Below are positions 17,011-44,387 of a stretch of DNA of 64,000 nt, piece by piece. The position numbers and the translations under genes are program-made. Within the stretch, counting starts at the first letter, position 1. Each line of letters opens with the position of its first letter. The notes under the pieces were generated by a model. That model ran no database searches and was not told the DNA's origin. It worked only from the letters and a program-made list of their open reading frames with translations. Source of the stretch: Conus ventricosus (taxonomy: Eukaryota > Mollusca > Gastropoda > Neogastropoda > Conidae); the NCBI GenBank assembly GCA_018398815.1, contig CM031595.1, positions 133,929,386 to 133,993,385 on the forward strand. Reading direction: 5' to 3'.

Positions 17011-17048
<38 letters not shown>

Positions 17049-17195
17049 ACAATGAACACACAACACACACACACACACAATAACACACCACACCACACAC
17101 ACCACACACACACACACACACACAAACGCACACTACACACACCCACACACACACGCACGCACGCACGCCACGCACGCACGCACACACACACACAC
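15560..17195. repeat. Composite microsatellite block, about 1.6 kb
   Basis: Alternating (CA)n/(TG)n and (GA)n/(CT)n tracts with short unique spacers. All long open frames here are translations of dinucleotide repeats and I call none of them. Several spacers resemble each other (for instance 16198-16235 and 16315-16350, 'GACTGAT.A..AATACATA.AT.AA'), so the block appears to have grown by local duplication. Confidence 0.9.
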
Positions 17196-18148
17196 TTGTG
17201 TACTCACGATTCGTGGATGGTAAGCCATGGGTCTGTGTCCAATATTCCTACTTCTCAGCACATAACTGCATTCACTATCACTTTTTACACAACACTAAAT
17301 GTGCTTGCTCTGCACTTGTCTCGTGGCTGTGTCATACACTTCTCCAGAGAAGCGGCTTTGGGTTTACAGAAGAGTGTGACCACGGACATGGGATTTTTGC
17401 TGTTGCCACTCTCCTCTCTCAAACCGCCCCCACCCCCTCACGGCCCCCACCCCCACACTTAAATGAAGTACACTGTGCACCGTTTGAATATAACAAATGT
17501 CGATATCAATAATTTAGGTATGTTCAGTAGTGACGTCTCCTTCATGTAATTTATTTTTAAACCGAGATTTATCAATTTGCATAATCTTGGTAATAAAGGT
17601 CATTAGTGCTAGCTAATATATACACCCATTACAAAATGGAAATATCACTATCAAGTCAGAGTTTGATTGGCACTTCGTTTTGCTGGTGGGAATACTGTTT
17701 GAGAACGGCCGATTTCTTTATCTTTTTCCTCTGGTCTCCCACCTTTACTCTGCTGTTTGAAAGTGAGTGCATGAGAGCACACGACTGGACAGATAATCTG
17801 GGGTCAAGACAGGGCCATATTTTGAGGCTTTTCAAATTCTGCCAAGCACGGCTCTTTGTAGTAGTTGAATGTTGACGGTTTTTGTCAGATTTTTTCAAAG
17901 TGTTTGCACAAAACACACAAACTATTTTGAATGTACTTCCTCCCTATCTTCCAGAACATTCACATTGAAGGATTACGTTTATTTCAGAAGCAACACTCAA
18001 CTCGTGTACTACTGATGTGTTTTTATCTTTCTTTGATCTCTTAGACCTTATCCCACACAGTCTACACAAGCACCTTTAAACGTTCAAATGTTCAGTGAGA
18101 GAGAGTGACCGTTTTGTTCTATAATCCTTTCGGCCATCCCCCCCCACC
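17196..18148. other. No gene seen
   Basis: Unique sequence without a supported feature. Short open frames show no recognisable motif. Confidence 0.6.
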
Positions 18149-18248
18149 CCCACTGCTCTCTCTCTCTCTCTCACACACACCCACACACACGCACGCACGC
18201 CCGCACGCTACCACGCACGCAAGCCCAAACACACGACACCCACACCAC
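18149..18248. repeat. (CT)n(CA)n microsatellite next to the viral element
   Basis: (CT)n, (CA)n and CACG units directly abut the left palindromic end of the virus-like element. The true integration junction may have been lost in it. Confidence 0.85.
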
Positions 18249-18347
18249 AGAGAACGGTAATATGACCGCTTTTGGCTCACCCGCTCTCAACCGGCCTTGG
18301 CCCGGTCTCTGGCGCGGGGCGACTCCAAGCGGCATAGACAGTTCTCT
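18249..18347. repeat. Left terminal palindrome of the viral element
   Basis: An imperfect palindrome of about 99 nt centred on GGCCTTGGCC (18293-18302). The outer arms AGAGAAC..GTAATATG..CCGCTTTTGG (18249-18274) and CCAAGCGGCAT...GTTCTCT (about 18325-18347) are complementary apart from a few mismatches and bulges. The inner part is GC-rich with mismatched 'CTCTC/TCTCT' stretches. It would fold into a long hairpin, as at closed linear DNA ends. Confidence 0.75.
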
Positions 18348-18635
18348 ACTAAGGCATGACTTTAATAACCAAAAAAATAACTACCTACAATCATACATAC
18401 TGTGTTTAAGGGTTATCTGTTTCAATACTAATTTACTAAACTTTTTAGATTTTTTAGTTTTCTGCTTAATCCTATGTTTTTCCTGGTTGTTTTCAATAAC
18501 AATCATTTTTACGCAAAATTCATCAAAGGATCTTGTCTTTCATGTGAAATAAAACTACAGTCTTTAACTGTTCTCTAAAAGTTTTTTAAAACCGAGATTT
18601 ATATTTTGACAATATCCACACCTACACACTGCAGG
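18348..18635 (-). pseudogene. Decayed copy of the packaging ATPase 3' end (inner terminal repeat)
   Basis: About 80-85% similar by eye to the reverse complement of 35220-35516, which contains the last third of the ATPase gene and its 3' flank. Similarity fades after about 18635. The frame is broken by many small indels and there is no Walker motif in this segment. Either the terminal inverted repeat of the element extends into the ATPase gene, or this is the edge of a second, inverted element copy. Confidence 0.7.
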
Positions 18636-19091
18636 TGAGAGTGATTGGCTTATGCAGGCTGTTTTTTTAAAGGCATGCCCAGTGAAGCGCGGCACTCCCC
18701 AGAGATTTCAATAGAAGCATTCAGAGCAAGCTAGGTGGTCTCCGCTCATGCACCGTTGGATTTGTAAGCAGTCAGCAGTTATGAATAGCGATCGTTTTTC
18801 TATGCCTTCAGTTCTGAAGCGCGAGCTTTTTATAAGTGGGTAGAGGATTTTGCTCAGTCATTCCGCCTGGGGTGTAAAAAGTTATAGACCATGTCTTACA
18901 TTCCCTATCATAAGATCAAGTTTAATCTGTGTTATTAAAAGACACGTCACATCGCCCAGCACTTAGTGTTGTTGAAACGGGCCTTAAGGTATCTCGTCAT
19001 TTGGTGTTGTGGTGCTGTGGTGATCGGTCGAAGTTTTCTGTGAGAGAAGTGTTTGCTGGTAATAAAGATTTTGCTTAAACGAAATATTATT
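18636..19091. other. No gene; upstream region of the left plus-strand ORF
   Basis: No supported coding region. Confidence 0.5.
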
Positions 19092-19522
19092 ATGTCTCAA
19101 GACAGCATTTCTCGAATATTAGCGAACTTTGGAATCGCAAGTGCTCATCAAAATCTATTTGATTTTCAAACACAGCCCTCAACTTTAATTCTACCTGCCA
19201 TGGATCAAGCTTCTACTTTTCAACAAGCTCAAACTCTCCCGTTACCACGCCAACACAACGAATTGGTGGCAGAGGAAGAAATGTTATTTTGCAAGAGAAT
19301 CAAGACATTAAAAAAATGACAGAATAATTGAAAAGATTAAAAGGAAGGACCGCAGGATTTGCCAAAGACGCCTAAAAAAGAAAGCTTGCGCAATTGTTAA
19401 AAGAAAGATAAGGAGACAAAAAGGAGAACAGATCTTTCAACGGCCCACAAGATTTACCATGACATCTTATGGCACAGGTCCTGCAGGCGACATTCAATCA
19501 GCTCTTTCCAGAGAGCTTTACT
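19092..19522 (+). pseudogene. Unknown viral-element ORF, charged and coiled-coil-like
   Basis: Starts MSQDSISRIL at 19092 and runs 75 codons to 19319. A further Lys/Arg-rich segment (RRQKGEQIF, then TRFTMTSYGTG) follows in another frame to about 19522. The composition suggests a helical, basic protein. I recognise no family. Its position just inside the left end and its plus orientation suggest a gene of the viral element, but this is inference. Frameshifts near 19316 and 19350. Confidence 0.4.
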
Positions 19523-19967
19523 GATCAGATATTTTTAAAACAGCAAATGAAGCTGACAAATTGTAGAAAGACTAAAAAAAAGGGATGAGAAATTTGGGAC
19601 GGCAAGATGCACAGTCCTTGTTAATTTACGTTCCGTTTGGTAACTTCTTGATTTTGTGTAAACTATGGCAGGAAATGAAAGGAACGAAGGCGAGAACGAA
19701 GGGAAACATGGGGCTGTTTGGTTGAAAGAAAAAACCGGGTATTTGATGTTCACGCACGAAAATTACGTGCCGTTTGTCAAGTGTTCTTTTTGGTAAACCC
19801 AGGGTTTTTATGTTGTATGGCCTTCCTTTCGTTTCATTTTTGGCAAGCTAACTGAAATCAAAGCTCATGCTGCAAGTGCAAAATTTGATGCAGTTCTGGA
19901 AACAAGATCCATGCATATTCAAAGCGAGTGCTCAAAACAGTACCAGTAAATAGAACCGTTTATGCGT

Positions 19968-20240
19968 GACGGCTGGATAGAATCAATATGCACATAGTAT
20001 AGACCTGGCAAGGTTCAGACGGTCAGTTACTAAAATACGAACGTTCACGCTGTGAACGCTAGCCTGACTGCCAACCTTACTTACTCATGTAATGACTTTT
20101 TTGTTCAAAGACGGCTGGATAGAATCAATATGCACATAGTATAGACTGGCAAGTTCAGACGTCGGTTACTAAAAATACGACCGTTACGCGGTGAACGCTA
20201 GCTCTGCTGCCAACATTCTAACTCCATGTAAATGACTTTT
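19968..20240. repeat. Two tandem copies of a ~142-bp unit
   Basis: The unit starts GACGGCTGGATAGAATC at 19968 and again at 20109. The copies share most bases and differ largely by single-base length changes. Function unknown. Confidence 0.85.
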
Positions 20241-20588
20241 TTGGCTGTTGTGGTCTGCCTGCCTTCTTTACCTCTACCCCACAACGCTCCGCCAACACCA
20301 TGCTACAAACTTTTTTAGGCTGCCTTTAGGCGGCGCGGGTGTTGTACTTTATACCAATTGTCTTGTTTTATTCAATCAGGCTTTTGTTAATGCACCTGGT
20401 GGCTGCTTGACTTGCGACAAAGAGCCAATGAATCACAAAAACGCAAGCGCCGTCTTGCACCAAGTGGTGTTACACTAACGGAATTAATAAAGCTCTGTGT
20501 TCACCACCACACACTCCTCCCCTTCTCACGCCAACACCCATGCACGCCTCCTCCCACTGTAGCCCGAGCTTTGAAAACACTTGACATC
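20241..20588. other. No recognised gene inside the viral element
   Basis: A short open frame (20248-20478) is hydrophobic at first and shows no known motif. A basic stretch QKRKRRLAPSG occurs in another frame near 20425. Confidence 0.4.
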
Positions 20589-20900
20589 TTTGCCCTAGGC
20601 ACCCCAAGTCCTTAATTAAGTTCTTAATCACAGTCGCCCAAGAAGTGGTCCTAGGTAGTGCTACTTTTTGGCTACCTTCCACTTTGAACACATGACGCCT
20701 TCACCCTAAGTCACCCCAAGTCACCCCAAGACGCCCCAAGTCCTTAATTGAGTTCTTGATCAAGTACACCAAGTCCTTAATTTTGTTATTAATCAAGTCA
20801 CCCCAAGTTCTTAATTAAGTTCTTAATTTATGTAACCTCACAGTTCTTAATAGCATCTTGATCAATTCATTCCACAAGTTTTACTCAGTCTTACTAATGT
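20589..20900. repeat. Degenerate minisatellite, CACCCCAAGTCCTTAATT units
   Basis: Repeated CACCCCAAGT(C/T)CTTAATT(A/G)AGTTCTTAATCAA-like units of roughly 38 bp, with partial units between. Visible at about 20597, 20702, 20767 and 20798 and decaying to 20900. AT-rich with nested TTAATTAA palindromes. Confidence 0.7.
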
Positions 20901-22560
20901 TACATCAAGATTGTAATTATGTCATCCCTCTAAGTTACAACTAAGTTCTTATTTATGTTATCTTATAATTATCAAAAAAAAAACAAAACAAGGACAAATC
21001 ATATGTTTTTATCTTAAATAGTAGATGTCTAATATAGTACACACACGCCTCAAAAACGCGTCATCGTGTGAGGATGTCCTTGCCTCAGCGTCCTCTGCGC
21101 GAAATCGGTCAGCATAGATCTTAATGACGTTCTTACCCATCCTAAGCAACCACATGATTACCTTTCTGGTCTTATGGTAATGTCTTTATAGACTTCCATG
21201 TCTTTATTTATTGACTCCCATTTTAAACAAATAATAAATCCGTCATGGCTCTATTTTTATCAAAAACATTTTAAAAATAAGTTTTTTAACATATTATTGC
21301 ATTTTAAATGGATCAAATGATTTTTTGTTAATGGCGGTGCTGCGTGCTGTTGTTTTCGGTATTTAATGGTTTCAGATTTTTTTGGCTGCTTTTGTTTTTG
21401 TTGCCTTCTTTATATATTTTATACCAGTAATAACCGCCCCAAGCTAGCAGAAAGGGCGCCAAAAATGACAACAAGCCCATGTTTTCAATATTCCATGAAG
21501 ACTTTGGTGCCCTTGAATCACCTGGAGTTTTATAGGCTGGCATTGAATCAACTGTTTCTGGCGTTGGTGGTGTTATGTTTTTTTATGAGTTATATTCTGT
21601 GATTGTAAACATTCAATTTTTTTTGTCTGTTCACTCTGCTAATTTTTTCCTGCTTTAACACGCCGGATGATGGATGACTTTTCATGTTCTCCACCTGGAG
21701 TTCAGTGTTTCTGATGATTTTTGGTGGTACTTTCTCCACCTGAGTCAGTGTTTTCTGATGTCTGCCTGATTTTCTGGGCTCGATCATTAATTTTGAAGGG
21801 AAATAAAATCTATATGATAAAAACTATATTAATACCATGATAGGCGATAACAATTGTTCCAAATCTGTAGTATAAACACATCCTAGAGACTCTAAAGACT
21901 TGTTAAAACTGGATCTGCGTTAAATCATACATAAAGTCTTGTTCAGATTCAATGGGAGCACTCTACTGACTAGTTTAGTGTACAAAAAGCAACCGGTTTG
22001 CCTACAACTTTTTACCATTTTGATCCAAGTGGCGCTTCATACCTGTTATGATACTTTAAAATGTCTTGCGGCGACACTCTGTTTTGAATCTGTTCTTGCT
22101 GAATTCATTTCCGAGGAACAGTTTTGTTTTTCCACATGCTGCCAAAGAATACAGTCTTTCTTTTTTTTTGGCATAATAGCTTGTACTCACCTGGTCATTT
22201 GTAATCATAAGTTCAGGAAGGTTTATTAAGGATTCACTCGGTGTTTCATGTTTTTCTTTAATTATAATTATTTATTTTAAAATGAGCACGAAAAAAAAAA
22301 AAACTGTCCCAACCTTGTATACCATTCTGCTGTTATTGGAGGTCTAAGTATAGGATACTCAGCTTGGTAAATGCCTGTTAAAATTAAAACCAGCAGATTG
22401 GCAAAACTAGACTTTGAGGATTTTGCAAAGTAATTGCTGTTATTGCGGCTTCGTTTGCCACGAAAGCTTTTCTCGTCAAGCAAGGAATATTCCAGCAGTA
22501 TAAATATGTAAAATAAAAATACATTTATTAAAAAAAGGCTTCATCGTAATGATGATAGGA
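20901..22560 (-). other. Decayed minus-strand ORF block of the viral element
   Basis: Several short minus-strand frames look protein-like. One (21328-21543) has a hydrophobic segment GLLSFLAPFLLAWGGYYWY followed by Lys/Asn residues, as in a small membrane protein. Others lie at 21590-21787 (basic, Gln/Lys/Val) and 22277-22483. I recognise none. They may be fragments of one or two real genes that accumulated frameshifts, but no motif proves it. Confidence 0.35.
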
Positions 22561-22882
22561 GGCGCCCTGTGGTGAATGCTGCTTGCCTTTTTAGCGGAAA
22601 AGTAATTACGCGTTTAGTAACTACGGGACGACAGCGAGAGGAAAAGACTAACAAAGCTGTGGAGCAATCGCAGCTGCACAAGATAACTATGAAAAGCAGA
22701 GAATTGAGCAGTTAGGATTTCATTAATAACACACTGACACACAAACAGAGGCCATGCGGCTTACACATTTAAAGATGTTGACCAGGCAATAAAAGAATAT
22801 ATTATCTTGTAAAGGCAAACCCAATCGAAACATTGCCCACAAAAATGCAGTGACTTTTATCAGCCATCAGTAAAACAAAAAG

Positions 22883-23241
22883 ATGCAAGAAATCGTGTTT
22901 GTTATCTTTGGTATTATTATGACAATTGTTGTATTTTGTTTGCGCATAATATTGGTGAATAAAAATGAACAAATCTATTATTCACCAAAAAGGATATTGG
23001 AAGGGAGAATCACGGCAATAAAAATGCTAAGCCAAGCAGCGGGATAGTCAGTGAACAAAACAGCGAAGAATGGTATCTAAACACGCGATTTGGCCAAATT
23101 TATTTACCTGCACCTAGACGCATACAGAGGCACACTTTGTTTCATACACTCCAAACGACACCCATCAAATGGACCTTCTATTATTTACACCATGATACGA
23201 TAGACGAAAAAAGATTTAAGTACGCCCTCACATGTCATTGA
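22883..23241 (+). pseudogene. Small membrane-anchored protein of the viral element, frameshifted
   Basis: Begins with a hydrophobic segment, VFVIFGIIMTIVVFCLRIIL, from the ATG at 22883. After a slip near 23030 it continues with WYLNTRFGQIYLPAPRR to a stop at 23241. The total is about 118 residues: one N-terminal transmembrane helix and a short soluble tail. No family recognised. Plus orientation, like the ORF at 19092. Confidence 0.4.
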
Positions 23242-24224
23242 CCATAGCTTCAAGATACAAAGATGCAGGAACCCATTAAACAAAGAGTGCTTCTGCTGTT
23301 GTGTTTGCCATACAACTGATATACAACGAGGTCCATTAAACATACTCCTGCATGAATTCACGTCGATGAGGGAAAGGAATTAAAGGCCAGAAGTGAATCA
23401 ATTATTGTTAAAACATGGAGTTGCTATTAAAAGAGGCATTCCAGGAGTTCACAGATCCCTGGCTTTAGTTTGAAACTTTAACAAAACAGTTAGCCGAAAA
23501 GACTTTCTCCTACCAGTATCACCAGAGAGCTGATTGACAATTCTCGCAACACAGAATGGGTTAGAAGACTGCCATTCAGTTTTTGCGCGCAATGAATAAT
23601 GAGAATTTAAAGGGCTAAAACCAGTACAAGCAATCAAAAGAAAAACATTAAATGTGCTGAAGGAGAGTCTTCATCCAGCAAACTATTAACGTTTGGTTTG
23701 AAAGTAAGGTACCTTTATTTACCGGGGGAAGCAGAAGGGGGAACTCGATCAGGGCAACCCCGATATCGGTTTGGACGTTTTGCTCCATATGAAATATAAA
23801 GAATGTAAAAATGAATCCGCCATGTATTATTTACGGAGAAAATGCACAACAAAACAACCAGCTCCTCAAAGATCTTTGTGTAAGGACAGAACTGCAGATA
23901 ATCCCACCAGACACAGTTCTCTTAATTAATTTACGTAAAATATATTTGAGTTAAAAATGGACGCTCAGCGACGAAGTGCGAACGAAACAGAACTGGTAAA
24001 GGAAGAGACCTTGGAAATGATAGGGATCCTTTGATGGTGTAATGCTATTAGGGGAACATTTTTGAGGATTAATCAATTGCATGCTAAACCATCCAGATCA
24101 CCCTAAAACTCAACCCCCAATGGGCAAAAGAATATCTTGAAATAATAAAAAAAAATTCGAACGCCATCAAGCAACACATGAGAAAAAAGATTTAAATGAA
24201 TTGGATGAAGGGCTATGATTGATC
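23242..24224. other. Decayed region, no confident gene
   Basis: Plus-strand fragments such as the one near 23410-23455 (EAFQEFTDPWL) and one near 23810-23935 look protein-like, but no frame stays open beyond about 45 codons and no motif is visible. A missing integrase or protease could be hidden here, but I cannot show it. Confidence 0.4.
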
Positions 24225-27200
24225 TATAAATAAAAGCTGATGAAAAATATAAACCCCTGTTTATGATGGTCCTCCAGAGCCCTATTGCATATGAAAAACT
24301 CTGGATTTACAAACACACGTTTTGTGTTTGTTCTATCTAATGACTTCTTTGTTACAACAGTTGTGTTGATACATGTAGATTAGAATCGCAGTCAGTTTTT
24401 ACGTTTTCTGATGAAAGTTTGATTGTCAAACATGCTCTTTGTAGTTGTCCTGCGATATGCTCGGACTGCACAACATGCGTGATTATTCCTTTTGCTTTCT
24501 TAATTGGTTTTATCCTGGCACGAAATACGGTACATTTTTTACCTTAATCCCCACATACTCCGGATCACCTTTCCATGAAATTCATCCTTATCTTTCCTAA
24601 AACCTTCATGTTAGGAAATGGAATGCAATGCGTGAATCTTTAGGGTAATTCGGATGTGTCGTACCATCCCGCTGTCTCTTAGCCACTTCGGTTTGCATGT
24701 CTTTATAGATGTGTCAGTAGGGATATCTATATCAAACTATCCTCGTATCTGGGTAAAGTACTCTGGGACGTGGATACAGGGGTTTAAAGTAGTCATAAAG
24801 AAATTCTAACATCAAAAAGCTTTTGCTTAATTCTAAATCACAGTAAACCCAATAAATAAGGTTTGTCCAATTTGCCTTTCTTTTTTTTCATCCTTATGCC
24901 AAAAAGTGATCATGAAACTTCCTAAAGTCATGATTAATTTGGTTTTGAAGTTAGCTTAATTGGGCCTCGTTCTCTTTTGTGACCAATCTGACATCTTTGC
25001 GCTTGTGCGGATTCTCCATAGTCTTTCCAAAAACAGATGTTGTCATCAGCTTGAAAAAGTCTTTTTTTGAAGATTGTGGATTTAGTTCTGAGATCAGTGT
25101 TCTTCATGATGTTATGGTTTTTCATGAAATGTTCTTGATCAAAAGCAATTATACGATGACAGTGTCACTTCAAACCATGTCTTAAATAGAAAATTGTAGA
25201 AGTCTGTAATGACAGACATAATTTTTTTTGCCTCGAGATTGGCACAAGTTTAGGCAGGTTCTGTTTTTGCCTCATTCTTTAGACTTTCTGCTGCTAATGG
25301 ATAGTCATTATGCAGGTCATGGAGTTCATTAGGAAATTCCATAAGTCAACTTCTAGAATAAGACCTATTTACGATTAGCTGTAAGATTATGCAGATGTTT
25401 ACAAATTCTTGAAAGTTTTTAATACCACCAGTGTACATTGTAAAGTTGCGTAATGAAGCGATTGCGCCATAGCCAACCATCAGAGATTGTTTGCATCTAA
25501 GTCATGAGAGAGTTAACGACCTTATACTCGGATCATATTTCGTCCAGTATTTGTTGTTTGTTTACAGTAATGGTGCGACGCCATACTAATTCCTCACGCC
25601 CAATGTTTTCAATCATCTGAAGCATTGGTAAAGCTGACAACAAATCAATCTGTACTCCAGTAAACTTTAAGAAAGCATCCCAACTCATCCCGGGCGCAGA
25701 AATATAATGCGCAGGATCCAAGCTGTAATGTTTCATGCAGGTCTTTCTATAATTTTCAAAGACATCCGCCAACAAACATGTATCTGCCATCAAGTATGAA
25801 TCATGATAGTCTCCATCGTTTTGCACTCTAACTTCTGCCATGCTTCTTGAGCATGCTGGTAATCAGAATCACTGATGTCCTTTCCTCTAAGACTAGAAAA
25901 GAACGCGCCTTTAGGAGGAAGTGTATCTTCATCAAACCTTTCCCAACTGTTCATGTACTCATAAGGGTAAACGCCCTTTCTAACGAGAGTTGGGTCAAAA
26001 TATTCTTCCGTTATTGGGCAGGACTTTAAGGACATAGCCAGCGACTCTAATGAACCCATCATGTGCTGCATAGAGTCATAAAAAGACATGTTATTTAAAG
26101 TGAAACACATGTACTTTTCTGATAATTGTGCAATGCATGCTACCCTGAAGGAGTTGGTTACTGCTTTCATTATAAGATGAGAGTCATAACCTCGCAAGTT
26201 ATGAAAGAAGATGGGCAGCTTCCATGTCTTTGGATCAAACTTTAGTTGAAGATTGCATTTACTATGTGCTGCTCCTCTGAACTTTCCGCTAATGTGATCA
26301 TGGTCTCTTACTTTTGGATTTTGTTGCTTCTTCACTGAGTTCTAAACCACAAATCCAACAATGTGTGGCCGAGTCATACTGTTCTGGTCTTCAGGCGTCA
26401 TTATGATTTCAGATAAATTCAGATTATTAGAACAGTCATTACGCACTTGCTGCATGCGCTGTAAAAATCTTCTAGCCGCATCTGGTCCTCTATATAATTC
26501 TGGCGTTGAATGAGCGCCATCCGACCTGACAATAACGAAGGCAAATGAACAAATCTGGTGATTACTCATTAAGACTGTTTTTCGAAGTTTTTGTGGCGCT
26601 GGCCCTTCATAAGGAACAATGAGCGATTCGAAGTCTGCGTAAACTAACGTATGGAGAATTTTGCAGTCGTTTTCAGTTCTTAAAACTAACTTTACTGCCT
26701 TCTGGGGGTGTAATTAGTTCTGTATTACAGTCAACTGGGCCGATACAATGTTTCTTATGTTCGCTTGCGGCTTGAGCAGATGGAATTCTTGTTAAACATT
26801 TTTCTGCAGAATTCTTGTTTATGGTAATGCTTTGAAGTATGCCGCAATAATCTACTCATTGTTCGTATCAATGTGTAATGCGGTACCCCCGCTGGTGAAA
26901 CATCAGCAGTAAGTCAACATGATTTTTGTCTGGTTCGCCATTGTTGGGCTGTTCTTGGACACTTTAATGGGTAGTAGATTTGTTTCCTCATCCCATGGTA
27001 GATATTGACAGTTATTGGTTTGTTTTGTTCTCAAACTGATCAATGGAATCCACGCTAACAGGAAAGGTCACCCCACTAAAGTTAAGATCATTGATGTAAG
27101 GGTGATAGTTAGACACTCTCTCTGCGTTTTTGCGGATATAATGCAGCCTTGCGAGAACACACCACATAAAACATTTGTTGTCTGTATTCTTTATGTTTAG

Positions 27201-27691
27201 AACTGCTCGTTTTGCTACTAATGCGGAGGTATTGGAATGTAAGACCTGCCTACAATCGGTGCATACTTAGACTGTTTTAATCTGATCTCTAAGACTTCGC
27301 CCTCTGACCAACAGAGCCTCTCATTTTGGCTTCTTCAGCAGCCACATCAAACTGTGTAAGTAGTTGGTCTGCCCAACCGGGTGTTAAGTCATTAGAGGAA
27401 AGAATAGTCTGTTGTTTAGTTGAGACCCAGACTTCTAGATTTTCTTCATTTATTGTTATATAGTCCTAGATTTTCTTCATTTATTGTTATATAGTCGATT
27501 AAAACAGCTAACATTACTTTAACTGGCGGGTCTATTGTTAGTTTACCCGGAACTTGAGAAATAGCATGCACAACACTTGCCTGTACGCTTGCTGGATCAA
27601 TGACTTCTAAATCAATATCATTCAGTGCTCTTGATAAATTTTCTTGCATTGCTTCAAAAAATTCGTCTGGTCCTTCATATAATTTATCCAT
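24225..27691 (-). pseudogene. Protein-primed family B DNA polymerase (pPolB)
   Basis: This enzyme would copy the viral genome from a protein primer. From the N-terminus (27691), an element-specific extension is followed by the family's N-terminal region (about 27250-26720). Exonuclease motif I reads YADFES (about 26650), then VRDHDHI with a CN pair (about 26300) and FFHNLRGYD (about 26200). Exo III is MADTCLLADVFE (about 25790-25755). The palm motif KLM..SVFGKTMEN lies at 25053-25011, and the catalytic YPDTDS-type motif lies at about 24740 but carries inserted bases. The C-terminal KVLGK..DEF and SLDR.NTKRVFV segments are at about 24600 and 24320. About 1,150 codons, a normal full length. It has at least ten frame breaks, including a 31-bp tandem duplication at 27435-27496, so it is inactive as written. 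Confidence 0.92.
27435..27496. repeat. Exact 31-bp tandem duplication in pPolB
   Basis: 27435-27465 is repeated without change at 27466-27496. Because 31 is not a multiple of three, it shifts the polymerase N-terminal frame and produces an early stop. Confidence 0.95.
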
Positions 27692-27810
27692 GCTGAGTTT
27701 CTTTTCTAACTCAAAATATTTATTTAAATTAAAAAAAATTAATTAATCAATATCGACGGTCTTTTTGTGCTTGGACTCATAAACTAAAGTATGAACACCC
27801 TTTGGCGTTG

Positions 27811-28437
27811 TTAATGTGAGCTGTTTAGAACAGAGTTTAATGTTTCGTTTACTTTTTTTAAGCATTCCTTTTTTATCTGCTCGGGGTCTGGCTGTTGAGA
27901 AAAACTTGTCCTCGCCTTTCTTTGAAGATCAAACTTTTGTCTTTTGTAGTCATCAAAATCGGCCTGTAAACGATTAAATTCTTCATCCGTGATGTTTGAG
28001 TCAGCTAGTGCTTTATTTATAATCAGCTTGAAGGAACTAAGTTTAGCTGTTATTAGTTGAACCATAGCTGTGTGCTTTTGGAGTTTAGTTTTTATTTTTT
28101 TGCTAGCAGCACCTACGGCTAATGAGCACAGGCCGAGAGCTAAAGACAAACCACCTAGAGGTAAAGCTGCTGGTGCACCTATGCCTGATGCTAAGAGACC
28201 AACACTTGTTCCTGCTGATAGAGCACTTACAGTTGATGCTCCAGTATTAACATAGGTAACAGCATTAAAGACAGCAGAATACCTTCGTTTGGCTTTGCTG
28301 TATTTTGAAAGGTCCTGCTCTAGTTTTTGTTGCATTTGTGTAATGTTTGTTAATCTAAAGGTTTTTATGCCGGGGGTTTCTACTATCTCTTCTTTTGGCG
28401 GCTCTGTAGGCACATTTGGATAAACTTGAACAGACAT
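27811..28437 (-). CDS. 208-residue membrane protein with Gly/Ala-rich hydrophobic core
   Basis: An intact ORF starting MSVQVYPNVPTEPP. Residues about 1-25 are Pro/Glu-rich and 30-55 helical and charged. About 58-112 is a long Gly/Ala/Leu-rich hydrophobic stretch with GxxxG-like spacing that could form two membrane segments or a membrane-inserting hairpin. The rest is a charged, probably coiled-coil tail. No enzyme motif. It lies 23 bp after the capsid gene stop and about 120 bp before the polymerase start, all on the minus strand, so the three could form one transcription block. I infer a virion or membrane-remodelling role. It is one of only two clearly open genes in the element. Confidence 0.7.
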   Translation of the reverse strand: MSVQVYPNVPTEPPKEEIVETPGIKTFRLTNITQMQQKLEQDLSKYSKAKRRYSAVFNAVTYVNTGASTVSALSAGTSVGLLASGIGAPAALPLGGLSLALGLCSLAVGAASKKIKTKLQKHTAMVQLITAKLSSFKLIINKALADSNITDEEFNRLQADFDDYKRQKFDLQRKARTSFSQQPDPEQIKKECLKKVNETLNSVLNSSH

Positions 28438-28460
28438 GCTTTTTTTAAAATAAAAATAAT

Positions 28461-30807
28461 TTAGTATTGTATATCTTTTAATCTGTTATCTTGAATATTC
28501 AGCTGCGCATCATATATTAAAAACAAATGTGCATTAAGCGGTTTATCGTCATCTTTTTCTTTGTCAATTTGAATGTTTATTACGTCTCTAACAGTTCTCC
28601 CCACTTCCATGCAACTGATTATCCTCTGTTGCCCTTAGGTCAATCCATAAACCGTATTTTGTTGTTAAATAATCATCGAGCCTAACACTGTGAAGGTGTA
28701 GATCTTTAGACGCAAGGTCTGCTGTTGGACTTCTATGCCTCCCACCACCAAACATTTTTCTTATTTCATCAAAATGCTGATAAGGTTTAACCCGTTCAGT
28801 GCCTCACAATAGTACAAAGAAAGGTGTTCCCAGGTGCCGGGGAAATCTCATGATTTGGGGGTCATAATTAACAAAAAATTCTAGCTCAGAAACTACAAAG
28901 ATAGAAAAATGAAATCTATATCATTTTTGAAGGAAATTGAATGAAGATTTTGAATCTGGCTTCTTTTGTTTTAATTTTGATAATACAAAAGTATTTAGGC
29001 TTGTAGATTTGGATAGATTTTTTTGCACGATCAAAAACATATGTATTTACCACATCCAAACAAGAACACACAGCAAAAAGTTGAAAATAAAGTTTGTATT
29101 GTCACACTACACCTGTAAATGAAAGTAAAACAGTTTGGAAGTCTATCAAGACGCTCACACTCGATGCAGACTGACCAGTCCACGACCACGCCCCCCCCCC
29201 TCCCCACCACACCCCCTTGCTCAACTTCAACCCTCTCTTTCACTCCTCATCTTCCCCTACCTTTTCGTCTGCACCGTGTCACGCCGCGAGCAGGCCACGA
29301 TCCCCTCTCGCACTGATTTCACAACCACTGGACACCAGCACGCAGTGCAGAGTACACACTTGGCTGGCTCGTTCGACTGACGCTGTCAGCTGAACGCACA
29401 CTGAGGTCACAGAGCCCTACTCAATAACTGACGAATATGGTCGGCAATTCCACCACTATCATCATCTCACCTTCATGCTCGAGTTTGTCGTTGAATAAAA
29501 GATTATTGTGTTTGTCAAAAATCATCAGCAGAGCCTGCTCAGCTGTGTAAATACGTTGACTTGGTCGCTGGTCGCTTCGACAACGAAGGTTGCGCCGCCA
29601 TCTTTGCAAGCGAGACACGAAGTGCTGGCTGGTCACCCAGTCAGTGATAAGGATAAATGGGCTTTCCCCTCACGTGTGGTCATTTACATATTATTTTAAG
29701 ACTACAGACATATAAGGCTTTCTACGCAAACTCTATTTGAGTCCGTTGATAGAAATAGTAACGAATGAAAACTCAAGAAAAATGCATGACGTCAGGGGAC
29801 TGCCCACAGGCACATGGAAAGCACTTTTATTTCCGCGTCAGCTGACTGACTAAAGGCGCTCAACGGGTTAAGCCCGCTAGCGTAGATTTGGTTAGGACTA
29901 CCTCAATTGTACATTGCACTTTCGTTATTTTAGGATTAAGAAACTTTTCAGTTTGTCTTTTAAATGGTTCTTCATCTTCGCACAGCAATAAAATACCTTT
30001 AAGCGATCTTGCTGCAGCACTAAAACTAAAATTCCATATCGTGTCTGCCCTGCTTTTAGGATATGTTGTATGATGAATCACTCTTTCGTAATATATTGCT
30101 AATTTTGACTGATATTGTTGCTCAATCAGCCTTGCTAAATTAGGGTTGCTAACAACGTCAAACTCTAACGAGATTCAGAAATGCTGTACTTTGCTTCGGT
30201 GTCTGATGATCTGATAACACGTTTGTATTCATTAAAAGTTAGTTCATATGACAATCTGTCTTTTAATGCTCCTTGATAGTACGGCGCATGCGCACTTAAC
30301 AACTCAAAATCCAAGGGGATGGAAAAGCGATTTCCATACGCATAACTTACAGCTACATACTTTTTGCCGTCTTTAGCATCTTCAGCGCCTATTCTGTGTT
30401 TTAGTGCTTCATTATTTTCGATTCCTTGAAAAGCAAGATCATTCCTTTCATTCCCGGTTAGCCATAGATCAGAATAGGTTAAAAATATGTCTGCATTGTG
30501 TAAAGAAATATTTCTTGCCCTCAAGTTTTATAGAAATTTTCTTAACAATTGCCCGCCCCAGATTCTGCACAACTGTCCTGTTTGTGTCTGTTGCTGCTTC
30601 GAGTTCTATTTTGAAAGTAAGTCGCGCAGAGCCTGGCACAACCACTTCATCTGCTCCTAGGTCTGGAAATTTGACAGTAAGAATTTGATCCGCATCAATA
30701 GTAGATGGATTATTTGGAACAATAATATTCCGTTTATTTCCCTTCACGCCAAAGGGCTCTTTCAGTCTTCTATGGGGGTCAAGAATTGAACCATATACTT
30801 GTGACAT
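28461..30807 (-). pseudogene. Capsid-like (putative double jelly-roll MCP) gene, interrupted copy
   Basis: Without the insertion the gene is about 421 codons. It starts MSQVYGSILDPHRRL at 30807 and ends ...NIQDNRLKDIQY at 28461. Beta-rich segments resemble Polinton/adintovirus hexons: a segment with ANNP-like PNNPSTID and VPGSARLTF, then NLGRAIVKKISIKLEG, IPLDFELL with YELTFNEY, and toward the end LKGILLLCEDE, NPKITKVQCTIEG and YQHFDEIRKMFG. I infer a double jelly-roll major capsid protein from this pattern and from its place beside pPolB and the ATPase; I have no structure or alignment. A 1,077-bp piggyBac-like element splits it at 28791-29867, and 1-bp indels break it near 29905, 30172, 30508 and 30520 relative to the second copy at 35586-36583. 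Confidence 0.62.
28791..29867 (-). mobile_element. piggyBac-like non-autonomous element inside the capsid gene
   Basis: 1,077 bp bounded by TTAA at 28787-28790 and 29868-29871. The ends are CCCGTTCAGTGCC (left) and, reversed, CCCGTTGAGCGCC (right), matching at 11 of 13 bases. CCC...GGG ends with TTAA duplication are the piggyBac hallmark. The copy at 35636-35639 has a single TTAA at the same place, the empty site. A minus-strand frame (29421-29636) with RIYTAEQALLMIF resembles the start of piggyBac transposases, so it may be an internally deleted derivative. No catalytic domain is present. Confidence 0.9.
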
Positions 30808-30847
30808 TTTTTATAAAACAAAAATAAAAAGTTAATTATTTAAAAAC
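30808..30847. promoter_or_regulatory. 40-bp divergent intergenic region, capsid / coiled-coil gene
   Basis: AT-only-rich gap between two start codons pointing away from each other. It must hold both promoters if each gene has its own. TTTTTTATAAAAC (minus side) and TTAATTATTTAAAA are TATA-like. The same gap is conserved at 36584-36623 in the second copy. Confidence 0.5.
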
Positions 30848-32044
30848 ATGGCAGGCATTGAAGATGAAGATTATGATTTTAATCCTGGAGACGACATGAG
30901 TGATTCCCCTTGGGAGCAGCATCGCTCGGGGCTCTCATTGCATGATGAATTAGCAGAAATCGGGAGTACATTACCAACAAGTCGGTATAAATTAACAGAA
31001 AGTAAGGTCAGATCATTATACCAAAGTTTAGGACAAATAACTTCCCGAAACTATATACCCTGATGATTTTGAACTAAAAGATAACCATTTGTATGTGAAA
31101 AACGACCAAGGACAACTTGTTCAGCTTACAACTAAACGAGACCCATCAAAGTTTGTAAGCATGAATACAATTAGACAAAGGCTCAGTGTGAGCGATCGAA
31201 GTCGCCTTGGCATTGTTAAACCAAAATTAAGGGGGGAGGCAGTTGCTAAACTTCAAAACACACTGCAAGAAACCCAACAGATACCCGGTACCAAATACAA
31301 AACATGGAACTTCAAGATTTAAATCAACCAACAGATGAAATAATAAATGCAATAGAAGCAGAAACCAGTCTTTCAGAAGAAACAGCATTAAAAACTATAC
31401 GTGACCCCCCAATACCCACGCGAGAATTAGAGGCCCTTGATCGTGCTTTAAGAACCATCAGAGGCGAATTAACAAACAATTTAGCAAAACTAGGTGAACT
31501 AGATGAGCATATAAAAAGAGAAAAAGAAAAACTCGTTGAGGCTGATGACGCCACTTAGGGCCTGGTGTTAAAGAAAGAATAACCCAAAGACTAAAAGATC
31601 ATGAACAAGAAAGATTGGCAAGACTAGAAGTGTTGTCTACTAACCGAGAACAATTGCGAACTCAAGTGAGCAGAAAAAGAGAAACTATCCAAAGAATTTT
31701 ATATGAAAACACAACGCTAGCAGAACGAATACGAACACTGTTTAGAGAGCAAGGAGTCACATTAGCAAGCGTTATAACGGCCTTAGGATTTGCAATAAGT
31801 ACACTGGTGATGGCTATTACAGGCGGCGGTGGTGCTGGGTCAGTGCCTCCACCACCATCGCCTCCATCGCCGCCTGATAAATCATGGGTAAAAAAACAGC
31901 TTGATCATCTTGCGGGTTTATTAAAAAAAATTAGCCAGTAAAGCCGGGGATGCTTTACCAGGTATATTAGGAGGTGTTGTTAGCTGGCTTTTGTCTACTG
32001 CAGGCAAAGTAGTTGGCTTTATGGCCGGCACTTATGGACATTAG
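30848..32044 (+). pseudogene. Coiled-coil protein with Pro-rich hinge and C-terminal membrane segments, copy 1
   Basis: Starts MAGIEDEDYDFNPGDD at 30848. An acidic N-terminus is followed by a soluble region (about 30980-31290) and a long heptad-like Glu/Lys/Arg/Leu region (about 31400-31740). A hydrophobic segment then leads through a Gly4 turn to PPPPSPPSPP (about 31770-31875). After one slip in an A8 run (about 31925) comes an amphipathic/hydrophobic end, LPGILGGVVSWLL. About 390 residues in all. No enzyme motif. Hydrophobic, coiled-coil and proline-rich parts suggest a fibre, spike or internal membrane-linked virion protein; this is inference. Further frame breaks occur near 31037, 31237, 31280 and 31556. 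Confidence 0.6.
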
Positions 32045-32061
32045 TTCTCTTAATAGTCGGG

Positions 32062-33277
32062 TTAATTTTTAGTAAAATAAAGACCAAGTAATCCTAGGCC
32101 AGTTAATCCAAGAACAAGTGCTGTCTTTTCATATTCATGGTCATTATTTTTTTTGACTTCGTGGACTTCAACGGTCTCTGGGCTTTGGACCATGGGGATT
32201 GGATGGCTTATTCTTGAGGGGTCATCTTGTTTGGTTACTGCTTGCAATATTACTGGCTCAGAATTTATTTCGTTTTTTCCGACCTTCTGTTCATTGCCTG
32301 CCACAAGGATTTCATTATTGTAGTTTATTATTGTGCCTATCTGGAGTCTGAGGTCAGAAGGCAGCATGTATAAACCAGTGCAACAGCAAAGTCTACTTTC
32401 GATCTTGCGTATTGTAAAACATTTTGGTACCTTTTTATACTTGAAGGTAAATCAACTGTAGAATTAATGGCGTCCTCTAAATATTGCTAAGTATTGTTTT
32501 TGAGCATCAAAACCAGTAGAAGGATCAGTTATGCTCGATCTCGTTTGTGCTTGCGAACCTAGCAAACACCAAACGTAAGTACGAACAGAGTCGTTTATTT
32601 CGTTCTATTCCTGCTTTAGTTAGGCCCTTAGAAGTGTCTAAGATAAATGTTGTCCATGCTGATTTATGCTCTTGCTCTATGGACCCTAGGTGAACAGTTG
32701 TGCCTGAAGAGAAAGATGTGTAAGGAGGATTCCAGTCTTTACTCATACTTTCTGTGCACGCCCCAAAAATAAGGGGTGCCTAAACCATGATTAAGATCTG
32801 ACTTTTGTCTAAAGTCTGTCTTAACATTAATATTGAATTCGTTACAAATCCTTTCAAAAGCCTTCATGTCTATTCTGTTGCTGAATGGATTAAACGGTTT
32901 GTCATTTGGTAATGGCGCTTGCAGTTCAGTCAAAATACGTCTGAAGGTGTAATAAAAATGAAATCTGTACACAGACCTCACCAAAGGATCAGGATGATTT
33001 AAATGATTAGCATACGATACTCCACACCCAGTTGATGCACAAAACACAGCAAAGTTTAACTGGTTCTGATAAAACTGCATCGGATGACTGAACCACACTT
33101 TTGCGATGTAGTCTTTTTTAATAGGGGGGTTAAGATATCTGCTTAATGGAGTACTCACCTTTACTTGAAAGGTGTCAGTCTGGGTCACAGAAATGTCAAG
33201 GGTGTCAGTTGTTATATTTTTAAGATTGTAGTGCGCCCAACAGAATATTTTGCATCAGTATATTTGAATGCACTCAT
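32062..33277 (-). pseudogene. Virion-type protein with C-terminal membrane anchor
   Basis: I join three frames (33188-32739, 32746-32525, 32367-32062) because each runs into the next with only small slips and no gap. The gene starts MSAFKYTDAKY at 33277 and ends after a C-terminal hydrophobic anchor TALVLGLTGLGLLGLYF. It has about 405 codons. Features include FSHPMQFYQNQLNFAVFC and FHFYYTFRRILTELQAPLP, aromatic segments with no known active site. It starts only 18 bp from the oppositely directed gene at 33296. Presumed structural; family not recognised with certainty. Breaks lie near 33195, 32745, 32560, 32490 and 32385. Confidence 0.55.
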
Positions 33278-33295
33278 TTTTATTTCGTTTAAAAA

Positions 33296-33990
33296 ATGTT
33301 TGTAACAATAACAACTCAAGACCGTCCTTCGTTTTTAGAACATGCTGTTAAGAACGATTGCGGAACAGAATGGTTGCACTTCATGAAATTTTTTACAAAG
33401 TTGTATGGTTTAAAATAAGTGAATCCAGAAGAATAATACGATTCTAAAGTTAACAAATCAGGGGTCAAAGTTAGCCAGTTAACAATACTGATGGTTATTA
33501 CGGGTTTTGCTCACTAAAAGAAGCAATGAGTAACTTTGACATTACTCTCAAACTTAACAATGCAAATCTAAAAACAATGTTATCATTCAACCTGAAGAAG
33601 ATGTAGTACATTACCTTTTAATGTAGAGCTAGCTAAAATGTTAGGCTTTGCAGATGACAATCATAGATTTGAGTTACACAAGACAAAACTACTTATGAAG
33701 GAAAAATCCGCTCGATCTTGCATTACATTCATTACTCTATGTTCATTTAGATGAGCTGAGCACTGATGAAAACTTGTATGATGGAAGGCCTCAATGTTTT
33801 AAGAGCTCTTCCGTCAGGGAAAGCTGCATATTGCGATTATGAAATTATACAATTTCCTAATTTACAGTTTAAAAGATTAGTTTGTGGGAGGGTTGGATCA
33901 TTTAATATAAAGATCACAGACAAAACAGGGAAAGTTGTGAAATGTGATAACCTGCACCATAGTTTGGAAATAAAATATACGTTGTTCTAA
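33296..33990 (+). pseudogene. Short virion-type (possible minor capsid) ORF, broken
   Basis: Starts MFVTITTQDRPSFLEHAV at 33296 and is interrupted by a stop at about 33417 and several slips. The last 60 codons (33790-33990) are open: NLQFKRLVCGRVGSFNIKITDKTGKVV, with alternating hydrophobic residues as in a beta-sandwich. In Polinton-like elements a minor capsid (penton-type) gene of similar size lies near the ATPase, which is my reason for the guess. No decisive motif. Confidence 0.45.
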
Positions 33991-33996
33991 AAAATA

Positions 33997-34854
33997 ATGT
34001 CGCGTGGGCCAGAAGAATCAGGAGTTACATTAGCACCTGTGAGGTGTATAACTTTAGAATTAAAAGACCCTTGCAGACGTTGAGGACTTTGAACAGAACG
34101 GTGAGATTAGGCGCTTTGTATGGTTTTGAGTACACTAAAGATGGTGATTATAAACGCAAAGAGGTTGGCGACAACAAAAGGTTTCCTAAACTAGAACCAA
34201 CTACGCAATGTAGAAGCAAATAATGCTGGCCAGTATGAATATAAAATAGTTCGAAAACCTGACCTCAAATGGCACTTAGAACCATATTTAGAATGGGACA
34301 TAAATTTAAATTCATAAGCCATTTACATTTTTTAGTCGTCAAAAAAGTTTCAGAAAAGCATTCAACTAGGTCCTTTACATGTAAGTCTTATGCCAGAGGA
34401 CAATAGTCGAAAGAGATTGAAATAAAGCCGTATGAGAATAAAACAGTACATCCTCCCCGAAGAGAAACGGTTTTGAAAGATGCTTCTACCCAAAATTACA
34501 GTTCATTCCACAAATGAAATTAGGAGAATGCGTTCACAATGATATTTGAAATTTCTGTCTTAAAAGATAGGGGAGGGATGGGGTTGTGGGCGTTAGTGAC
34601 GTCCTTCTAAAGGAATTCTAATTAGCTGGCAAAACTTAGACGTTGAAAAACTTAAAGTTACTGTCGTCATTCTTCACAATGGTGAGGATATTAAGGTCAT
34701 AACAACAAGCAACAAAATCAATATTAGTCTAAATAGAAACAATCTTACAGAACTGAATTGGATTAATCTTACACATTTAGACCTTATAGGATTTTATTAT
34801 ACTGAACAAGTTTTGACAGAGAGCATGATAAAAACAATAACTGGATTAGATTAA
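33997..34854 (+). pseudogene. Unknown viral-element gene before the ATPase, decayed
   Basis: Starts MSRGPEESGVTLAP at 33997, 6 bp after the previous stop, and ends at 34854, 16 bp before the ATPase start. It has about 285 codons in at least five frames. Segments such as EDFEQNGEIRRFVWF, KPDLKWHLEPYLEWDI and an Asn/Thr/Leu-rich C-terminus are readable. No known family seen. Its tight spacing suggests it belongs to a plus-strand block with the ATPase. Confidence 0.45.
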
Positions 34855-34870
34855 GTTCTGTTATAAAACT

Positions 34871-35479
34871 ATGGAGCAGTTAAACTTTATGACAAAAACC
34901 CCTCATTGTTCATTAATTTGTGGACAAACTGGTTGTGGAAAAACAATATTTATCCTCGACCTGTTACAAACAGTTTATCGTTATAATTTTGATCATATTG
35001 TGATTTTCTGCCCAACACTTAAATGGAACAAAGCATATCATGATAGGTTTATATGGACTGATGATAACATATTTTTAGTTGATCCCAGCAATAAACTGAG
35101 TGAATGTTTAGAACACTTTTATAGATTGTTTGAGGGAACGCAGACACTATTTATTATAGATGACTGTTCGGCAGAAAGAGACATAGTTAAAAAAAGAAAA
35201 ACTTTGTCAAAACTAGCCTTTAGTGGAAGACATGCTGGGATAAGTGTGTGGATTTTATGCCAGAAATATAACTCGGTTTTAAAAGACTTTAGAGAACAGT
35301 TAAAGACTGTAGTGTTATTTCACATGAAAGACAGAGACGCATTTAATGAATGTTTGCGCGAAAATGATGTTATTGAAAATAATCAAGAAAAACACAGGAT
35401 TAAGCAAAAACTAAAATCTGAAAAGTTTTGTAAATTAGTATTGAAAACGGACAACCCAACACAGTATGCATGTTTGTAG
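34871..35479 (+). CDS. FtsK/HerA-type (A32-like) genome-packaging ATPase
   Basis: An intact 202-residue ORF. It would hydrolyse ATP to drive viral DNA into the capsid. Walker A is GQTGCGKT (residues 18-25), Walker B is LFIIDD (93-98), and SGRHAGISVWILCQ (118-131) matches the sensor region of this family. The protein is slightly short compared with usual Polinton ATPases but has the whole core. The start MEQLNF at 34871 places Walker A close to the N-terminus, as is typical. It is the last gene before the right palindromic end. A diverged inverted copy of its 3' third lies at 18348-18635. It is the best-preserved gene of the element. Confidence 0.9.
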   Translation: MEQLNFMTKTPHCSLICGQTGCGKTIFILDLLQTVYRYNFDHIVIFCPTLKWNKAYHDRFIWTDDNIFLVDPSNKLSECLEHFYRLFEGTQTLFIIDDCSAERDIVKKRKTLSKLAFSGRHAGISVWILCQKYNSVLKDFREQLKTVVLFHMKDRDAFNECLRENDVIENNQEKHRIKQKLKSEKFCKLVLKTDNPTQYACL

Positions 35480-35516
35480 GGTCGTTATTTTTTTGGTTAT
35501 TAAAGTCATGCTTAGT

Positions 35517-35585
35517 AGAGAACTGTAATATGCCGCTTTTGGAGTCGCCCGCCCGAGACTGGCCAAGGCCGGTTGAGAGCGGGTG
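35517..35585. repeat. Right terminal palindrome of the viral element, partial
   Basis: Reverse-complement counterpart of 18279-18347. It runs AGAGAACTGTAATATGCCGC... to the centre GGCCAAGGCC (35561-35570), then about 15 nt into the other arm, and stops abruptly at GCGGGTG. Beyond that is the second capsid copy, so the outer arm is missing. Confidence 0.75.
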
Positions 35586-36583
35586 CCTCCCACCACCAAA
35601 CATTTTTCTTATTTCATCAAAATGCTGATAAGGTTTAAGCCCGCTAGCGTAGATTTGGTTAGGACTACCCTCAATTGTACATTGCACTTTCGTTATTTTA
35701 GGATTAAGAAACTTTTCAGTTTGTCTTTTAAATGGTTCTTCATCTTCGCACAGCAATAAAATACCTTTAAGCGATCTTGCTGCAGCACTAAAACTAAAAT
35801 TCCATATCGTGTCTGCCCTGCTTTTAGGATATGTTGTATGATGAATCACTCTTTCGTAATATATTGCTAATTTTGACTGATATTGTTGCTCAATCAGCCT
35901 TGCTAAATTAGGGTTGCTAACAACGTCAAACTCTAACGAGATGTCAGAAATGCTGTACTTTGCTTCGGTGTCTGATGATCTGATAACACGTTTGTATTCA
36001 TTAAAAGTTAGTTCATATGACAATCTGTCTTTTAATGCTCCTTGATAGTACGGCGCATGCGCACTTAACAACTCAAAATCCAAGGGGATGGAAAAGCGAT
36101 TTCCATACGCATAACTTACAGCTGAGCTACATACTTTTTGCCGTCTTTAGCATCTTCAGCGCCTATTCTGTGTTTTAGTGCTTCATTATTTTCGATTCCT
36201 TGAAAAGCAAGATCATTCCTTTCATTCCCGGTTAGCCATAGATCAGAATAGGTTAAAAATATGTCTGCATTGTGTAAAGAAAATATTTCTTGCCCCTCAA
36301 GTTTTATAGAAATTTTCTTAACAATTGCCCGCCCCAGATTCTGCACAACTGTCCTGTTTGTGTCTGTTGCTGCTTCGAGTTCTATTTTGAAAGTAAGTCG
36401 CGCAGAGCCTGGCACAACCACTTCATCTGCTCCTAGGTCTGGAAATTTGACAGTAAGAATTTGATCCGCATCAATAGTAGATGGATTATTTGGAACAATA
36501 ATATTCCGTTTATTTCCCTTCACGCCAAAGGGCTCTTTCAGTCTTCTATGGGGGTCAAGAATTGAACCATATACTTGTGACAT
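35586..36583 (-). pseudogene. Capsid-like gene, copy 2, 3'-truncated, uninterrupted by piggyBac
   Basis: Same product as 28461-30807, from the start at 36583 to the FGGGRH segment, about 332 codons. It is open except for a 5-bp insertion at about 36122-36126 that splits it in two frames. It shows the empty TTAA site at 35636-35639 and retains bases lost in copy 1. Confidence 0.62.
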
Positions 36584-36623
36584 TTTTTATAAAACAAAAA
36601 TAAAAAGTTAATTATTTAAAAAC

Positions 36624-37681
36624 ATGGCAGGCATTGAAGATGAAGATTATGATTTTAATCCTGGAGACGACATGAGTGATTCTCCTTGGGAGCAGCATCG
36701 CTCGGGGCTCTCATTGCATGATGAATTAGCAGAAATCGGGAGTACATTACCAACAAGTCGGTATAAATTAACAGAAAGTAAGGTCAGATCATTATACCAA
36801 AGTTTAGGACAAGAACTTCCCGAAACTATATACCCTGATGATTTTGAACTAAAAGATAACCATTTGTATGTGAAAAACGACCAAGGACAACTTGTTCAGC
36901 TTACAACTAAACGAGACCCATCAAAGTTTGTAAGCATGAATACAATTAGACAAAGGCTCAGTGTGAGCGATCGAAGTCGCCTTGGCATTGTTAAACCAAA
37001 ATTAAGGGGGAGGCAGTTGCTAAACTTCAAAACACACTGCAAGAACTCCCAACAGATACCCAAATACAAAACATGGAACTTCAAGATTTAAATCGACCAA
37101 CAGATGAAATAATAAATGCAATAGAAGCAGAAACCAGTCTTTCAGAAGAAACAGCATTAAAAACTATACGCGACCCCCCAATACCCACGCGAGAATTAGA
37201 GGCCCTTGATCGTGCTTTAAGAACCATCAGAGGCGAATTAACAAACAATTTAGCAAAACTAGGTGAACTAGATGAGCATATAAAAAGAGAAAAAGAAAAA
37301 CTCGTTGAGGCTGATGACGCCAACTTAGGGCCTGGTGTTAAAGAAAGAATAACCCAAAGACTAAAAGATCTTGAACAAGAAAGATTGGCAAGACTAGAAG
37401 TGTTGTCTACTAACCGAGAACAATTGCGAACTCAAGTGAGCAGAATAAGAGAAACTATCCAAAGAATTTTATATGAAAACACAACGCTAGCAGAACGAAT
37501 ACGAACACTGTTTAGAGAGCAAGGAGTCACATTAGCAAGCGTTATAACGGCCTTAGGATTTGCAATAAGTACACTGGTGATGGCTATTACAGGCGGCGGT
37601 GGTGCTGGGTCAGTGCCTCCACCACCATCGCCTCCATCGCCGCCTGATAAATCATGGGTAAAAAAACAGCTTGATCATCTT

Positions 37682-37682
<1 letters not shown>
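36624..37682 (+). pseudogene. Coiled-coil protein, copy 2, C-terminus replaced by (CA)n
   Basis: Same product as 30848-32044. It is open through the N-terminal and coiled-coil regions except for a frame change near 37010-37070, then reads into (CA)n before the C-terminal membrane segment. Confidence 0.6.

Positions 37683-37726
<44 letters not shown>
37683..37726. repeat. (CA)n microsatellite at the copy-2 breakpoint
   Basis: About 22 CA units that directly follow coding sequence of the viral element. Confidence 0.95.
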
Positions 37727-38396
37727 GCACCCTAATGGTACTTCCAACAATACACTTTAATTTGAATTTGCCGATAGAAATAGTAGTAGTGATTGGAAAT
37801 GAAGTATTATTTTAATTATAATAATTATTCACTTATTATTGTTATGCCTACTACCATTACTGTTATCAGTAGTATTATTTTGCTTGTAGTTTCCCTTTAA
37901 TTAGGCCTACATTGCTCTACATGCAACCATAGTACATATAAAATGCAGCAACAATGAAGAAATATGTATATATACAACGGTGTAAATACGGCCCCTTTAC
38001 AAATGCTAACTAACTTTTCATTCACAAAGATTTTTGCCAACGCCTGGCTGGCCTACTTCGGCCAAAGATAGTTCGCGCGCCAGTTCGCGCGCCCTCCACC
38101 TCCCCCGTCTTTGCTTCGGCTTACCAGGCCACGGCGCGCGCAGCACAGCCGGTCGCAAAGTTCTGTCAGAAAGTTTTAAACACGAACTTAATTATGGTAC
38201 TCACAGAGAAGACTGAAATGCCAGCTTTTGTCACACTCTCAAGTACTCACTGCGCCATTGCTTTCATACAGAAATTATAGTTAAAAAAACCTCTGTACAG
38301 TAAATATAACTTAAAGATGTTGCACCAGTCTCGAAGCGTCCAAACACACACAGCGTCTGGCCGTGCGGTGGCTGACTCGCTTCGGCCTCGCCAGAG
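37727..38396. other. No gene seen
   Basis: AT-rich to about 38030, then a GC-rich patch with repeated TTCGCGCGCC (38071-38090) and the related GGCGCGCGCAG (38133). No coding signal. Confidence 0.6.
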
Positions 38397-44322: not shown

Positions 44323-44387
44323 TGGTGTGGCCCGCCCCAAACCGTGACAATGTCCCAGTCTCAAAATTTGACAGGTTTAAAATATAA

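What the first reader, a model, noticed from the sequence alone, without database searches (positions are those of the whole stretch)
18249..35585. A ~17.3 kb Polinton/adintovirus-like element with inverted palindromic ends
Seen: pPolB motifs in order, an intact packaging ATPase with Walker A/B, a capsid-like gene, four other compact genes, and matching inverted ends. Known: pPolB + ATPase + capsid in 15-20 kb is the Polinton/adintovirus plan. Inferred: this is an endogenous copy of such a virus in a mollusc-like host. What differs from the textbook plan is the absence of a recognisable integrase and protease, and a set of membrane/coiled-coil proteins I cannot assign.
Basis: partly seen in the sequence, partly recalled or inferred. 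Interest (0 to 1): 0.88.

Follow-up and report, generated by a model that had tools for sequence, protein, structure and literature searches.

The report
Broken Polinton-like virus with palindromic end
This stretch is a damaged copy of a small DNA virus lying in animal-like DNA, from a large and little-described Polinton-type family, and one of its ends could fold back on itself, which is not expected for this kind of virus.

The parts
18249..18347 (.). left terminal palindrome (imperfect, 99 nt)
18278..18621 (.). left inverted repeat; carries a degraded antisense piece of the ATPase 3' end
24355..27266 (-). DNA polymerase of the protein-primed type, in many short pieces and frames
   Evidence: most motifs recognised by recall
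27446..27742 (-). 98-aa ORF, no Pfam match
27811..28437 (-). 208-aa ORF, intact, with a long hydrophobic stretch; no Pfam match above cutoff
28464..30807 (-). capsid gene, copy 1, split by frame changes and by the insert
28791..29867 (.). 1,077-bp insert between TTAA sites, absent from copy 2; piggyBac-like by its TTAA target (recalled criterion)
30848..31941 (+). coiled-coil gene with a C-terminal hydrophobic and proline-rich stretch, split
32062..33254 (-). conserved gene of unknown function, split; a partial homologue models as mainly helical
33760..34854 (+). pieces of one or two genes; unproven candidate for the minor capsid protein
   Evidence: role is a guess
34871..35479 (+). A32-type packaging ATPase, intact
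35246..35585 (.). right inverted repeat, outer arm of the palindrome missing
35584..37683 (.). second partial copy: truncated capsid gene (-, about 35586-36583) and coiled-coil gene (+, from 36624), ending at a CA repeat

Best explanation
One integrated, now defective copy of a small linear double-stranded DNA virus of the Polinton-like kind, bounded by its terminal repeats, with a fragment of a near-identical second copy fused to its right end. By analogy with the families, an intact relative would copy its linear genome from the ends with a protein-primed B-family polymerase, pump it into a double-jelly-roll capsid with the A32-type ATPase, and enter host DNA from time to time (all inferred, none tested). 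Here the polymerase and capsid genes are split and the capsid gene took a later insert. Some frame changes may be sequencing error. That it is a Polinton-like endogenous virus at all I put at about 0.93; the figure below is for the single-copy arrangement.
For: Intact ATPase with Pox_A32 (22 of 22 homologues scanned match too); capsid homologues and a double-jelly-roll model of homologue P0004; polymerase pieces; inverted repeats at the two ends; left palindrome starting where low-complexity flanking DNA stops; the capsid of copy 2 ends where the right repeat stops. Eight contig lengths are shared by the listed capsid and ATPase homologues, so the two genes probably travel together.
Against: The right palindrome is incomplete, so no target-site duplication can be checked. 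The repeats contain part of a gene and differ at 23 of 329 aligned bases with 18 gaps. In a relative the capsid and ATPase seem to sit within one 1,962-bp contig, unlike copy 1 here. The 5.7 kb between the left repeat and the polymerase has no gene that Pfam knows (9 pieces, 3). No integrase was found.
Confidence: 0.65

Rival explanations
1. Two or more fragments of different Polinton-like copies lie side by side: a left part with polymerase, capsid and coiled-coil gene, and a right part with ATPase and capsid copy 2. The inverted repeats would then be two copies of one ATPase-end segment, not the two ends of one genome.
For: ATPase and capsid copy 2 face each other across 105 bp (35480-35584), and in relatives the two genes share contigs as short as 1,962 bp (lengths). 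Two copies of the capsid and coiled-coil genes exist.
Against: The left repeat starts with a full palindrome at the edge of low-complexity DNA and is inverted relative to the right one; copy 2 lacks the capsid's last part exactly where the right repeat stops.
Confidence: 0.25
2. An adintovirus in the strict sense, with integrase and protease lost or unreadable by decay.
For: General gene plan; a chromodomain-like stretch (Pfam Chromo, E 0.09, below cutoff) precedes the homologous gene in relative P0269.
Against: No integrase or protease match in the pieces scanned; in BFVD an adintovirus capsid ranks only 17th.
Confidence: 0.06
3. A fragment of a large nucleocytovirus integrated in the genome.
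For: Capsid fold ranks nucleocytovirus capsids first in the PDB list; ATPase matches Pox_A32.
Against: Polinton capsids also retrieve PBCV-1 VP54 best (Krupovic 2014, section 4); the polymerase pieces are of another type; relatives sit on contigs near 13 kb.
Confidence: 0.03

Closest known systems
Polinton / Maverick elements (Krupovic et al. 2014, PMC4028283)
   Same: pPolB-type polymerase pieces, FtsK/A32-type ATPase, double-jelly-roll capsid best matched by PBCV-1, inverted terminal repeats, about 17 kb
   Different: no integrase, protease or penton found; a full palindrome at the left end; repeats overlap the ATPase gene
Adintoviruses (Starrett et al. 2021 not held; definition taken from Buck et al. 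2024, section 16)
   Same: polymerase plus capsid plus packaging ATPase in a midsize linear genome of animals
   Different: integrase not found; hexon similarity could not be compared
Meldviruses, e.g. Meld23486 (Buck et al. 2024, PMC11071296; sections 16 and 18 and passages read)
   Same: adintovirus-like replication genes with a capsid resembling those of larger DNA viruses
Bidnaviruses and parvoviruses (PMC4061559, passages read)
   Same: bidnaviruses carry a Polinton-derived PolB and terminal repeats; parvovirus ends form hairpins
   Different: bidnavirus repeats are reported not to form hairpins; here the capsid is a double jelly roll

Membership tests
[quoted passage not shown]
   DNA_pol_B_2 E 0.012, below cutoff, for one piece; motifs in order in raw frames by recall; pieces not joined
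Polinton / Maverick | packaging ATPase of the FtsK/A32 type | tested here: met
   Pox_A32 3e-17, cutoff passed
Polinton / Maverick | double-jelly-roll major capsid protein | tested here: met
Polinton / Maverick | single-jelly-roll minor capsid protein | tested here: inconclusive
   33254-32062 modelled helical in a partial homologue; 33760-34854 not modelled
Polinton / Maverick | RVE integrase | tested here: inconclusive
   no match in the pieces scanned; not every frame was scanned and the copy is decayed
Polinton / Maverick | adenovirus-type cysteine protease | tested here: inconclusive
   as for the integrase
Polinton / Maverick | terminal inverted repeats | tested here: met
   18278-18621 against 35246-35585; that both are true ends is inferred
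Polinton / Maverick | 6-bp target-site duplication (recalled criterion) | not testable with these tools
   right outer end is missing
Adintovirus | hexon recognisable by BLASTp against adintovirus hexons | not tested
   no reference hexon sequence was fetched
Adintovirus | rve integrase with C-terminal chromodomain | tested here: inconclusive
   none found in the window pieces; weak Chromo hint in relative P0269, E 0.09
Adintovirus | PolB with N-terminal OTU-like domain | tested here: inconclusive
   27015-27266 looks OTU-like by recall only; Pfam found nothing there
Meldvirus | adintovirus-like PolB and integrase with a pox/mega-like capsid | tested here: inconclusive
   capsid fold fits, integrase not found, polymerase class not placed by a tree

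The most novel reading that the evidence does not exclude
A broad family of about 13-kb animal viruses, missing from a main virus catalogue, joins a protein-primed polymerase to palindromic, foldback telomeres whose repeats reach into the ATPase gene, and has no integrase, so that its many genomic copies arise without one.
Probability: 0.2. Interest if true: 0.75.

Novelty: new member of a known kind. Interest (0 to 1): 0.45.

Why it matters
The capsid and ATPase belong to families with about a thousand database homologues each (959,098), yet seven IMG/VR scans gave no relative that I accept, so surveys built on that catalogue may miss the group. If intact relatives also have palindromic ends, it becomes testable how a protein-primed linear genome makes use of foldback termini.

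Tried and rejected
IMG/VR was scanned seven times: ATPase, ATPase alignment (25), capsid alignment (26), 183-aa polymerase piece (36), 50-aa polymerase piece (53), a 30-base degenerate motif (55) and the alignment for the 33254-32062 gene (101). Six returned no locus. One search returned one, L001; its ORFs look to me like those of a tailed phage (recognised by eye, no family search), and I rejected it as chance. These scans use a few exact peptide patterns, so distant relatives can be missed. GTDB genomes with the ATPase alignment: none confirmed of 29 stretches. Phage records with the ATPase: none. PDB sequence searches gave only chance-level rows (and none in 91). Rfam: no match in the window.

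Weak Pfam rows that I set aside as chance: TubZ_C 0.00029, under its cutoff, for 36624-37088; coiled-coil families for 37073-37732; DUF2471 0.016 for 19044-19316; FAIM1 0.027 and Capsid_N 0.18 for the capsid piece 36119-36586. Among 24 capsid homologues 15 match Capsid_N at E<=1, best 0.0024, but P0004 itself does not.

Full report
WHAT IS THERE. The packaging ATPase is a complete ORF, 34871-35479 on the plus strand, 202 aa, Pfam Pox_A32 at 3e-17. The capsid gene is on the minus strand and occurs twice: copy 1 in pieces at 30807-28464, and copy 2 at 36583-35586, cut after residue 332 of homologue P0004. The polymerase lies on the minus strand at about 27266-24355 in many short pieces and frames. 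Its motifs can be followed in order, but mostly by recall of the family. Pfam supports it weakly: of 10 pieces, 1 hit DNA_pol_B_2 (0.012, below cutoff), 1 gave a chance hit, 8 gave nothing. The last catalytic motif looks degraded in the raw frames.

ENDS. The inverted repeats match at 86.2% over 355 columns; without gaps 306 of 329 aligned bases agree, with 18 gaps. The right repeat contains the 3' part of the ATPase gene; the left carries a degraded piece of it, residues 127-156 being recognisable by tblastn. At the left edge an imperfect 99-nt palindrome begins at 18249: -24.1 kcal/mol against a shuffle mean of -14.6, z -3.92, 0 of 200 as good. I chose those bounds after seeing the arms; ending 7 nt earlier gave z -1.48, 17 of 200. 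The left outer arm against the reverse complement of the right inner arm scores 45, best of 2,000 shuffles 21. Against its own inner arm it scores only 22, which the best shuffle (28) exceeds, though the 99th percentile is 18. So the palindrome shows best when the two ends are compared. The right end has lost the outer arm (z +0.55).

DAMAGE AND DUPLICATION. Copy 1 of the capsid gene holds a 1,077-bp insert between TTAA sites, with similar short inverted ends, and copy 2 has a single TTAA there. I call it piggyBac-like from the TTAA target, a recalled criterion. The segment 35584-37683 matches 28736-28793 and 29865-31913. Over 2,041 aligned bases of the longer match there are 8 substitutions and 10 gaps, 5 of the 10 gaps in homopolymers. 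More gaps than substitutions suggest that some frame changes are sequencing errors. Whether the duplication is real, a second haplotype or a misassembly was not settled, because the genome search did not complete.

WHERE ELSE. Seven scans of IMG/VR and one of GTDB genomes gave no relative that I accept; one locus, was rejected. The relatives are known only from the protein database, mostly without names, so the host of this window was not identified.

HOW IT MOST LIKELY WORKS. Shown: gene content, the repeats and the left palindrome. Inferred from the families: protein-primed replication from the ends, ATPase-driven packaging into a double-jelly-roll capsid, integration into host DNA. Guess: the palindrome folds back during end replication, as in some protein-capped linear replicons (recalled).

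WHAT IS KNOWN. Krupovic et al. 2014 (PMC4028283: section 4 and passages) and Krupovic et al. 2024 (PMC11071308: abstract, sections 6 and 9, passages) describe Polinton capsids and polymerases. Bellas et al. 2023 (PMC10120064: passages) report that cnidarian capsids were the only metazoan ones outside the main Maverick-Polinton cluster. Buck et al. 2024 (PMC11071296: abstract, sections 16 and 18, passages) describe meldviruses that pair adintovirus-like PolB and integrase with pox- or mega-like virion proteins; it was the only paper listed for 'meldvirus'. For 'polinton' with 'palindrom' 44 papers were counted and 15 listed, by title and abstract start only; I do not claim that palindromic ends are unpublished.

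VERDICT. A real, damaged Polinton-like endogenous virus from a large and poorly catalogued family: a new member of a known kind. The palindromic left end is the point worth following.

Noticed in passing
28791-29867: 1,077-bp TTAA-flanked insert with similar short inverted ends inside capsid copy 1, absent from copy 2
   Followed up: partly
2369-6632 (-), 43354-48526 (+): LINE-like retrotransposon ORFs: RNase_H, Exo_endo_phos and RVT_1 Pfam matches in 3 of the pieces scanned, plus a sub-cutoff Exo_endo_phos_2 match
   Followed up: partly
15563-18232: dense CA/GA microsatellites directly left of the element
   Followed up: no
19968-20243: two tandem copies of a 139-bp unit inside the gene-poor left part of the element
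   Followed up: no
50328-52254: overlapping diverged repeats, with GC skew 0.44 at 50001-52000
   Followed up: no
55252-56781: near-tandem repeats of about 510 bp, 94-95% alike, followed by inverted pieces of the same sequence
   Followed up: no
57077-57740: self-inverted (palindromic) sequence of several hundred bases
   Followed up: no
P0218, P0069: some homologue clusters stand for many member sequences (239 and 107), which may reflect high copy number in some genomes
   Followed up: no
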